This document shows positions 2,270 to 63,420 of a stretch of DNA of 64,000 bases, one piece after another. The notes beneath the pieces were generated by a model, which saw nothing but the letters and a program-made list of their open reading frames with translations, was not told the DNA's origin and did not search any database. This DNA comes from Lepidurus packardi (Eukaryota; Arthropoda; Branchiopoda; Notostraca; Triopsidae): the NCBI GenBank assembly GCA_023053545.1, contig JAKZAN010000002.1, positions 9,110,790-9,174,789 of the forward strand, written 5' to 3'. The number at the start of each line of letters is the position of its first letter. Position 1 is the first letter of the stretch. The position numbers and the translations under genes are program-made.

Positions 2270-5200
2270 ATGACCGCTGCCGCAGCCCTGAGCGCCTCCG
2301 TGATGGATCATGGCCAACACCAGCACGGCAACTACAGAGCTTCGCCGTACCACCATCACCCGCACCACCACCACCATCACCACCACCACATCCACGGCCA
2401 CGGCCATCGCGTTTTCAATGGAGTCGGAGTAGCTGCTGCCGGAGTGACAAGTTTCGGTTTCGGTCCTGTGCCTCCTCAGTTGGGCAGTGGCGTTGCTGGA
2501 GATCACACGACGACGAGTACGACGTCCAGCGGTAGCAATAATATCACAAACAGTATCCCGGATTGCAGCAGCACCATGCTAAACCCTTTCATGGACGCGG
2601 GTGCCCACATGGCGGGACTCAAGCTGGGCCCTGCTGGACATCACGCGGATCATCAGGGACAACATTTTGGTCAAGCGCCCGGTTACCCAGTGCCTGTGTC
2701 GCATCATCACGTGTCGCATCATAGTGTGTCACATCATGTGGGTTCTTACGCGGCACGGGATTTCTTACTCCGGCGAGACATGTCTTCTTTGGAAGGACAT
2801 CCCGCCTTGGCCGCCAACAATCAACATCCTCACCATCCTCACTCGGTGTTTATGGGGCCGCCCGACCACGGCGGGCCCCCGCATGCCGGCCACGCCGCGG
2901 TCTTGTTCCCCGGCCTGGCTGAGCATCACCACCAAGCCGCCATGAATCAGCAGATGCGAATTCCCATGGACATGTATTCGCGAGCGGATCAATTCCACGG
3001 CGGTATGGCCGCCGCGAATCAGTTTCATAACGCCATGAATCCGATGGCCGGAATGGGACCCATGGGTGGCATGGGACCCATGTCTCATCATCCTCACGCT
3101 CCCGGAGCTTTCTTTCGCTATATGCGGCCCCCCATCAAGCAAGAACTCTCTTGTCTCTGGGTCGAGCCGGATCAGCCCTCGCCCAAGAAGACTTGCAACA
3201 AAATGTTCAATTCCATGCACGAAATTGTGACACACATCACCGTGGAACATGTAGGTGGACCCGAATGTACCAACCATGCCTGTTTCTGGCAGAGTTGTTG
3301 TCGAAACGGCCGGCCTTTCAAAGCCAAGTACAAGCTGGTCAATCACATCCGAGTGCATACTGGTGAAAAACCCTTCCCTTGTCCGTTCCCCGGATGTGGC
3401 AAAGTCTTTGCACGCAGTGAAAATCTCAAAATACACAAAAGAACCCACACAGGTAAGCCTAAGTTTTTAAGTTTACAAGAAATACCCCATCCATTTCTCA
3501 CTTCATTTGCAGAGGCAATCAGTCTTCTTGCCCCTTCGTTCACCAGGTCTGGTTAGCTGGTAAAAACATAGCTTGTAATGCTTGCCAAATGCAACCGTCA
3601 GTCCCCGTAGGTCTTCTTTAACCACCCACACCAAGTGTTTCAGTGAAAATTTGAATGATGTTGGGTTTTCCCGAAAGTAGCATTCAGTCAAATTCCTCTT
3701 CCGTCAACGTCAACTTAACAGTGATTCCCATGCTTTTTCCACCGTCTTAAACAAGACAGTTTGTAAAAGGATTGGCCACACTATTTAGACTTCTTTAAGG
3801 GAATAAAAAATTTACCACAGCTTCCCCAGTGGAAATTTCCCGACGGACCAGACCAAACTGAACCAAAGGGCATATCGAAAAGCTCAGGTAAAACTTGCGC
3901 TGTGGCAGGTATACGCAACACGATCTGGCTCAAGTTGAACGCTCGCCTGTCCGTATCTTTTACCCATATAATAACAGACAGTCAGCCACTCGAGACTTTG
4001 GACAAAGTTGCGAAAGATGCAGATCTTTCGAAACATTGACACCGACCCACTTCTCGGTTGTGTCTTCGGGCTTTTTGGTCAAGCTACCGTAATCTAATTG
4101 AAGAACGACAAGTTTTTATCAATCATGTAAATCTGGTTTGCAGCTTGTTGCTTTCTGGGGTTTTGCCCCTCTTTTCGCTTGTCGTCACCCTAATAGCTCT
4201 CTTTTCTCTCGAGCTACGCTAACCGTAGATCCTATAGCCAGATTTTGCAAACGATGCAACCACAGATATCCGATCTCATTTCGGGGGTGTCGAGTGCAAG
4301 TAGGCTATTACAAGTGTTCTAAGCTGTACCTCCCATCCCTTCGCAAACACGTGGCCATTTCCGGATAATTTGTGAACATGGAGTTGTGTCTTGATACACA
4401 AACATTCCCAGTTAATCCTACGTCTCGTAATTCCGCAAGAATTTTCCCAAGATGTTTCTTCGCCGTAGCCTCACGAGACATATTTAAAGTGCTAGAAGGG
4501 CCCATATCTTCTGAGTTACCTCCCTCATGGAACTCCACAGCATTCCAAAGGTGCTCTATCCGAACAGTTTTACGACCGCGACCACTGCCACCCATAAAAC
4601 CTTTTTCCGTTGTCCAAAAAAAAAAAAATTCGCCAAAATCTTCTTGTTGTCTACCTCCTTCTCCTCCTCGACTCACCTTTTCTTTCGGGCTATATGTCTG
4701 TCTCTCTCTTCTATTCTTTCTCTCGTGTCAGAGCTCTATAGTTCCGCTCATTATAGTAACTTGGGTGCTGTTTGAAAAATACTCCGAAGGGACGTCTTTC
4801 GTTCCTTCCTCCCAGAAATCGAAATCCCCGAATATTCAGAGCAACCAAGTCAATCCTATAAGTCAGTAAAATGCCAAACGTGTACCTCTGTTGGGAGGAA
4901 GAAGCTTTGGGTTAATGAGGTCCCTTAAGTCCTCTTGTTCCCCTAAAACCTAAAACAAGGCTTCCCTCCCCGTGAAACTGTGACCTCTCGTCTTCCAGTC
5001 ACCTTGACATCTTTGCCATTTAATTGCTGTGTACTTGAAGGTTTCCTAATCACTGTTAGTCACCACCCCCTTTTCCGAAACTCTATAAGATCATTTTGGC
5101 TACAAAAGTTATTCTTTTGATCTTGTGTCCTTCCCAAGTCTATGTTCAATGTAAGAAAGGTTTGACTTGGACAATGAGCAATGGTCAAGCAGATTGTGCA

Positions 5201-62142: not shown

Positions 62143-63420
62143 TTAAAATTGCATAGCTTTTGGCAAAGCGGAACAAGATTTGTAGTAGTCATCGGAATGC
62201 GTAACTTTCTGTTGCACATTCCATTCACAAGGCAGTGTGTAAAATATCGAAGGGTTTTCAACGCCCATTAATGTCAACCATTCCTCCAAATTGGGCATCG
62301 TTTCCTTCGTAGGAAATTCGTATTTCTTAATTATGTGGAATTGTCGTTCCAAGTTCGTTAATTCATGGCACTTCTTCGATTCGCGCATTTTCTGCAAGTC
62401 CAAGAGGATCAAACTGACGTCAAAGCCAGGCCAGCCATCTGGTTCCAGTTGTCCTAATCTGGGCTTCAGTGAATTCATAAGGCGATACATGGCAAATTGA
62501 TCCATAAACTTGGCATTTTGTGTTAACGCTACCCCCATAACTTGTTCTTTCTCAAATTTGTCAAATTGTGCATACAGCTGCACAATGTCAGCCCGGAACT
62601 TAAGCTTAGGGTTAAGAAAGATGACTCGATCCACTTCGGGGTAATGCCATGGTAAAATTAAAGGGAGCATTTGAGTGATCAAGGTTTCTTGAATCATGGG
62701 CAATGTAATGGTGGGGAAATGCCTATCAACTTGGCTAAGCAAATCGTGGTAAGTTTGTCCCAATAACTCCACCTGGTACGTGTATGTGCATGACGCTTGT
62801 TCTCCTGCTTTGCTAAAGATATCAGCGATGGCATCTTGACTCTCGGAATCGGTTAAGATATGGAACTGGATCGGCGCCGAACTATACAGTAGAATCCACG
62901 CAATCGTGTCTTTAGCCCTGTAGAAATTCCAATTTCGTAACTGCAAGCTTCTTTCTTAAGTTATTATTTTAAAAAGTGATTAGGTTTAGAAGTACCCAGC
63001 TGCTGCTAAAGGTTGTTGTCCAACGTAAAGGAGTCCGAGTAAGATATGAACGACAGTATTTGGTTTTAGGACTGTTTGTTGGGTAGGACTGAGCTTTAAC
63101 AAGGCTTGCTGATAAACATGTTCCGCGCTTTTCTGGGAATCGTCTTCCTACATCCAAAATTAGCATTTTAAATATTGAAAATATTCAGTATATAGCGAAA
63201 GAGAGGTCTTAAATCAGGGTATTGTAATGATTTGCCCGCAAAATTAAAAAATACTAGGAAGTATCCATACTTTGATGTAATTGTTAGGTGGGAAGTATGG
63301 TATGGGATCATTATGCGAGCTGGCTTCCGTTAGGTTAGCGGCTTTGGACCGTAATAAAACCGTGTATAGGGCAATGACACATAGTGATATTAGCACTGGA
63401 CCATAACGTGCACGTAGCAT
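62143..63420 (-). CDS. XXYLT1: XXYLT1-like glycosyltransferase, DxD motif absent
   Basis: Minus-strand exons 63420-63271, 63147-62996 and 62947-62143 give about 368 residues (human XXYLT1 about 393). The N-terminus (MLRARYGPVLISLCVIALYT) is a type II signal anchor, so Golgi/ER lumenal topology is expected. The large exon aligns with the GT8-fold domain: APIQFHILTDSESQDAI, IQETLITQMLPLILPWHYPE, LKFRADIVQLYAQFD, PGFDVSLILLDLQKMRES and LTLMGVENPSIFYTLPCEWN correspond to the human LHF...E, LDLDLKF, PGFNSGVMLLNLEAMRQS and MIGMEHPKLFHVLDCTWNRQ blocks. XXYLT1 adds the second xylose to O-glucose on Notch-type EGF repeats. Here the DxD is replaced by LNPKLKF (about 212-218), GFNSG reads GFDVS, the GDQD motif is missing, and the C-terminus is short. 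The exon 2/3 junction needs the acceptor AAG|C at 62948 to keep frame; the stronger-looking TTGCAG acceptor is out of frame. Family assignment is fairly firm; orthology and activity are not. Confidence 0.75.

What the first reader, a model, noticed from the sequence alone, without database searches (positions are those of the whole stretch)
2270..63420. Seven linked genes whose human counterparts share the same few chromosome arms
Seen here: ZIC, FMR1/FXR, SMC4, TRAPPC1, NUFIP1, WDR44 and XXYLT1-like within 62 kb. From established knowledge of human map positions: ZIC1/ZIC4, SMC4, FXR1 and XXYLT1 are on 3q; ZIC3, FMR1 and WDR44 on Xq; ZIC2/ZIC5 and NUFIP1 on 13q; FXR2 and TRAPPC1 together at 17p13.1. 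The seven families fall onto four arms that each carry a ZIC or FXR copy. My inference is that this window keeps a tight, possibly ancestral, bilaterian linkage that vertebrate genome duplications later split.
Basis: partly seen in the sequence, partly recalled or inferred. Interest (0 to 1): 0.7.

Follow-up and report, generated by a model that had tools for sequence, protein, structure and literature searches.

The report
Ancient chromosome linkage kept in arthropod
Seven neighbouring genes in what is probably a crustacean genome are relatives of human genes that sit on a few related chromosome arms, most likely because both inherited pieces of one ancient animal chromosome; this is a good example of a known phenomenon rather than a new one.

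Summary
All seven genes are present in the stated order. Pfam or PDB matches support six; WDR44 has only WD40 matches and is named by reading. Human arms were seen in print here only for FMR1, FXR1 and FXR2; all other human positions are recalled. With the arms fixed by ZIC and FXR, the other five genes all fall on them (about 8% expected per gene, recalled).

Chromosome scale: nine further families recalled as having members on these arms were searched. Eight were located, five on the window's contig C2 (12.5% of the assembly): DP, STAG, glypican, collagen IV, TSC22. Ephrin, Dishevelled and dachshund lie elsewhere; LAMP gave no match. Wnt control: 1 of 10 loci on C2.

Local scale: within 100 kb each side a SoxB cluster and a muscleblind gene also fit, but seven other named genes do not (2 of 9).

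So chromosome-level ancestral linkage is well supported, and 3q/13q/Xq describes it better than a set including 17p13.1. That the tight 62-kb block is itself ancestral is unproven: no amphioxus, mollusc or other arthropod genome could be searched. New instance of a known kind.

The parts
2270..3556 (+). ZIC first coding exon (odd-paired/ZIC orthologue); the true exon end lies before 3556
   Evidence: zf_ZIC 3.3e-26; single match in genome
10741..11304 (+). ZIC last coding exon (C2H2 fingers and C-terminus)
   Evidence: zf-C2H2 7.8e-9; joining to the first exon is inferred
11305..44129 (.). about 33 kb without a credible gene between ZIC and FXR
   Evidence: only two short low-scoring predictions; no Rfam match; few internal repeats
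44130..46956 (+). FMR1/FXR gene; 5' exons not fully resolved
49686..54899 (+). SMC4 (condensin subunit), 19-exon model
55121..55690 (+). TRAPPC1, three exons read by eye (start and end approximate)
56297..57992 (+). NUFIP1
   Evidence: PF10453 2.5e-7; model
58716..64000 (+). WDR44-like gene, running past the window end to about 64.48 kb
   Evidence: WD40; models; donor at 62099 and WD-repeat exon near 63.99 kb, acceptor not pinned down
62143..63421 (-). XXYLT1-like glycosyltransferase, lying inside a WDR44 intron
   Evidence: PDB best hit xyloside xylosyltransferase 1, 1.7e-17; model

Best explanation
The seven genes are linked because contig C2 inherited a large share of one ancient bilaterian linkage group. 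In the vertebrate lineage that chromosome was copied by the 2R duplications, and its descendants are now mainly human 3q, 13q and Xq, with a piece at 17p13.1. Single-copy survivors (SMC4, XXYLT1, NUFIP1, WDR44, TRAPPC1) ended up on different copies; families such as ZIC, FXR, SoxB and MBNL kept several. Gene order inside such groups is normally shuffled, so the 62-kb tightness is mostly a compact genome plus local luck, helped by XXYLT1 lying inside WDR44. Shown: the linkage here, and enrichment on C2 of families recalled from the same arms. Inferred: common descent and the role of 2R.
For: Five of five genes other than ZIC and FXR fall on arms those two define (positions recalled except FMR1/FXR1/FXR2). 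DP, STAG, glypican, collagen IV and TSC22 lie on C2: 5 of 8 located families, P 0.0012 for a contig with 12.5% of the assembly; Wnt control 1 of 10 loci on C2, Fisher 0.043. TSC22 was predicted in writing beforehand. SoxB genes and muscleblind flank the window. Published work shows such groups shared by amphioxus, scallop and vertebrates (PMC7269912, section 7 part 1 and passages) and traces in arthropods (PMC4244043, passages).
Against: Dachshund, predicted for C2 in the same note, is on C3; ephrin and Dishevelled are on C4 and C6. Seven of nine named flanking families do not fit, and 2 of 9 alone is not significant (0.16). Two nameable genes in a 40-kb sample of C2 at 4.0 Mb do not fit. Families were chosen from memory, later ones after seeing the first results. 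STAG, glypican, collagen IV and TSC22 also have human members outside the four arms (2q36-37, 7q22; recalled). PMC4244043 says insects and other Pancrustacea examined keep less synteny than the centipede.
Confidence: 0.72

Rival explanations
1. A regulatory block: long-range enhancers of ZIC in the 33-kb gene-free stretch, and perhaps inside neighbouring housekeeping genes, have kept FXR, SMC4 and others beside ZIC by selection since early animals.
For: Gene-free stretch beside a developmental regulator with few internal repeats; local fit higher in the window than in the flanks (5 of 5 against 2 of 9, Fisher 0.021, leaving out ZIC and FXR, post hoc).
Against: In human the seven are spread over several arms (recalled), so no adjacency is kept there except FXR2 with TRAPPC1 at 17p13.1 (recalled). 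No conserved non-coding element could be tested.
Confidence: 0.17
2. Chance, made striking by hindsight: seven unrelated genes whose human positions happen to fall on arms picked to fit.
For: The pattern was noticed after the fact; flanking genes are mostly elsewhere (7 of 9); 17p13.1-linked families are on other contigs.
Against: The arms are fixed by ZIC and FXR, and 5 of 5 others fit (3.3e-6 at 8%); independent families also gather on C2.
Confidence: 0.08
3. A functional cluster, for example FXR with the gene of its reported partner NUFIP1.
For: PF10453 is described as FMR1-interacting protein 1 (NUFIP1), and the two gene models lie about 9 kb apart.
Against: The condensin, TRAPP, glycosyltransferase and WDR44 genes share no evident pathway with them; FMR1 and NUFIP1 are on different human chromosomes (NUFIP1 recalled).
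Confidence: 0.03

Closest known systems
Bilaterian and chordate ancestral linkage groups (e.g. Simakov et al. 2020, PMC7269912)
   Same: Genes of one ancestral chromosome stay on one chromosome while order is lost; vertebrate descendants lie on several paralogous segments
   Different: No assignment of these genes to a published group could be made; C2 looks mixed rather than pure; the window block is tighter than macrosynteny requires
Human 3q/13q/Xq(/17p13.1) 2R paralogon with SOXB, ZIC, MBNL and FXR families (recalled)
   Same: The same families lie together, before duplication, in the window and its flanks
   Different: SoxB to MBNL spans about 254 kb here against megabases to whole arms in human; ephrin and Dishevelled, with 17p13.1 members, are on other contigs
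Genomic regulatory blocks / ancient microsynteny
   Same: Developmental regulator beside a gene-free stretch and unrelated neighbours
   Different: No conserved elements or conserved adjacency shown
Macrosynteny in the centipede Strigamia (PMC4244043, passages seen)
   Same: Arthropod scaffolds matching chordate linkage groups
   Different: A different lineage, probably crustacean, for which that paper reports weaker conservation in the Pancrustacea it examined

Membership tests
Ancestral linkage group (conserved macrosynteny) | Families of one ancestral group found on one chromosome more often than chance | tested here: met
   5 of 8 located families on C2, P 0.0012; Wnt control 1 of 10. Families picked from memory and partly adaptively; LAMP gave no match
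Ancestral linkage group (conserved macrosynteny) | Unselected neighbours belong to the same group | tested here: inconclusive
   2 of 9 named flanking families fit; 0 of 2 in a 40-kb sample of C2; 0 of 1 in a 40-kb sample of C4
Ancestral linkage group (conserved macrosynteny) | Orthologues share one linkage group in amphioxus, scallop or other outgroups | not testable with these tools
   No animal genome other than the window's own was available; published gene lists are in supplements not open here
Vertebrate 2R paralogon | Human members of the families lie on the same set of paralogous arms | tested here: inconclusive
   Seen in print only for FMR1, FXR1, FXR2 (FXR2); the rest recalled
Genomic regulatory block | Gene-poor stretch beside a developmental regulator | tested here: met
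   About 33 kb between ZIC and FXR without a credible gene
Genomic regulatory block | Clustered conserved non-coding elements and conserved bystander adjacency | not testable with these tools
   No related animal genome held

The most novel reading that the evidence does not exclude
A true micro-linkage SoxB - ZIC - FXR - SMC4 - TRAPPC1 - NUFIP1 - WDR44/XXYLT1 - MBNL of about 250 kb survives from the bilaterian ancestor in near-original neighbourhood, held by ZIC and SoxB regulatory landscapes, and its duplicated remains are the SOX-ZIC-MBNL-FXR neighbourhoods of human 3q, 13q32 and Xq26-27.
Probability: 0.18. Interest if true: 0.6.

Novelty: new member of a known kind. Interest (0 to 1): 0.42.

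Why it matters
If confirmed, one short arthropod stretch would stand for the pre-duplication neighbourhood of ZIC, SOXB, FXR and MBNL, an outgroup for asking how the vertebrate copies of these neural and developmental genes were separated. It would also show that a compact, probably crustacean genome keeps one ancestral chromosome recognisable, where earlier arthropod comparisons found weaker traces.

Tried and rejected
Dicodon exon scoring over-fitted to its training exons and was dropped. The first gene-finder settings chained the region into one false gene and were replaced. Paper searches by gene or arm names gave no paper on this paralogon (listings; only best rows shown for 35 and 62), and searches for Daphnia, branchiopod or crustacean linkage groups listed 1, 0 and 6 papers. 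(microsynteny, linkage-group papers) were seen as listings only. Passages of PMC5524304 and PMC10972751 did not bear on these genes. WDR44 could not be confirmed by PDB. A functional cluster around FXR and NUFIP1 was considered and rejected.

Rows dropped before counting flanks: histidine acid phosphatase (orthology unclear), SHARK-like kinase (no human orthologue recalled), ankyrin/ASB-like gene, C2H2 gene and unnamed predictions; the three SoxB loci were counted once. GPR155-like and the CDC5L-like fragment were counted as misses although their Pfam matches are under the cut-off. The Ski/Sno match on C2 was not counted as a hit: the prediction was dachshund, which by reading is the C3 match. 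Marker families were chosen in three batches; after the first (two on C2, two not) the next were chosen as 3q/13q/Xq families.

Full report
Setting. The window is C2:9110790-9174789 of a 108.6-Mb, 344-contig assembly. Gene content and compactness suggest a small crustacean such as a water flea; this is inference, no name was available.

Observation. The genes are there. ZIC is single-copy by its zf_ZIC domain. FXR, SMC4, TRAPPC1 and NUFIP1 are supported by domain or structure-database matches. The last gene matches xyloside xylosyltransferase 1 best and has no Pfam match. WDR44 has WD40 repeats and is named by recalled resemblance. A strong donor at 62099 and a further WD-repeat reading frame from about 63.99 kb (acceptor not pinned down, scan ended at 63990) show that the XXYLT1-like gene, on the minus strand, sits inside a WDR44 intron. 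Other predictions in the window were short and low-scoring; the finder missed TRAPPC1, so a very small gene could be missed too.

Human positions. FMR1, FXR1 and FXR2 at Xq27.3, 3q26.33 and 17p13.1 were seen in a passage of PMC10796922, and FXR2 at 17p13.1 also in passages of PMC5595435. With ZIC and FXR fixing the arms, the other five genes all fall on them: 3.3e-6 at 8%, 2.5e-5 at 12%. This ignores that the pattern was noticed after the fact.

Flanks. I fetched 100 kb each side and named genes from predictions, with Pfam for those scanned. Three Sox HMG genes lie about 62-96 kb upstream (Pfam run on two of the three; group B by reading). A muscleblind gene lies at about 147-158 kb in window coordinates (CCCH finger 9.6e-11; name by reading). 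Recalled human SOXB genes (3q, 13q, Xq, with SOX15 at 17p13.1) and MBNL1/2/3 (3q25, 13q32, Xq26) fit well. Seven others do not fit by recalled position: BCS1L, EFTUD2, PDE9A-like, TADA2-like, GPR155-like, NIP7 and a weak CDC5L-like fragment. So 2 of 9 flanking families fit, not significant alone (0.16 at 8%). Against this, the window has 7 of 7 (Fisher 0.003), or 5 of 5 without the arm-defining ZIC and FXR (Fisher 0.021); both are post hoc.

Chromosome scale. I searched the genome for nine other families recalled as having members on these arms. On C2: DP, STAG, every match, glypican, two loci, collagen IV, every match, and TSC22 (predicted in note). Elsewhere: ephrin on C4, Dishevelled on C6, dachshund on C3 (predicted for C2, a miss). 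LAMP gave no match. C2 is 12.5% of the assembly, so 5 of 8 has probability 0.0012; leaving out the two families with 17p13.1 members it is 5 of 6 (0.00016), a restriction made after the fact. Selection was partly adaptive: the later families were chosen after the first results. Several of the hits (STAG, glypican, collagen IV, TSC22) also have human members at 2q36-37 or 7q22 (recalled), probably further pieces of the same paralogon. Wnt genes, none of which I recall on these arms, gave 1 of 10 loci on C2 (loci grouped by eye), Fisher 0.043 against 5 of 8. Small samples: 40 kb of C2 at 4.0 Mb gave two genes I could name, inscuteable-like and TXNDC9-like, neither fitting; 40 kb of C4 gave one, WDR3-like, not fitting.

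Interpretation. Together these favour an inherited linkage group on C2 matching human 3q, 13q and Xq, diluted by genes of other origin. Published work shows such groups shared between amphioxus and scallop and traceable to vertebrate chromosomes (PMC7269912: abstract, section 7 part 1 and passages), and partly in arthropods (PMC4244043: passages, which also say that insects and Pancrustacea examined keep less). Because order within such groups is commonly shuffled, the tightness of the seven genes need not be ancestral. A regulatory block around ZIC has some support from the 33-kb gene-free stretch with few internal repeats (repeats dispersed elsewhere in the genome were not tested) and from the higher local fit, but had no comparative test here.

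Verdict. Observation confirmed; interpretation partly supported; ordinary in kind, with a good local example whose SoxB-ZIC-FXR-MBNL neighbourhood (about 254 kb) deserves a proper comparative check.

Noticed in passing
window 62143-63421 (-) within 58716-64000 (+): The XXYLT1-like gene is nested in an intron of the WDR44-like gene on the opposite strand.
   Followed up: partly
C2:9014429-9048577 (window coordinates -96360 to -62212; L001-L005): Three Sox HMG-box genes, apparently group B, in tandem on the minus strand upstream of ZIC.
   Followed up: partly
window 11305-44129: About 33 kb without a credible gene in an otherwise compact region, between ZIC and FXR.
   Followed up: partly
C2 about 7.26-7.34 Mb and 7.50-7.57 Mb: C2H2, STAG and collagen IV matches recur with equal scores about 237-241 kb apart, which looks like a large segmental duplication or an assembly duplicate.
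   Followed up: no
window 44130-57992: The FXR gene and the gene of its reported interaction partner NUFIP1 lie about 9 kb apart; probably coincidence.
   Followed up: no
window 17249-17340 and 24852-24987: A perfect 40-base tandem duplication and a 51-base, 86% inverted repeat inside the gene-free stretch.
   Followed up: no
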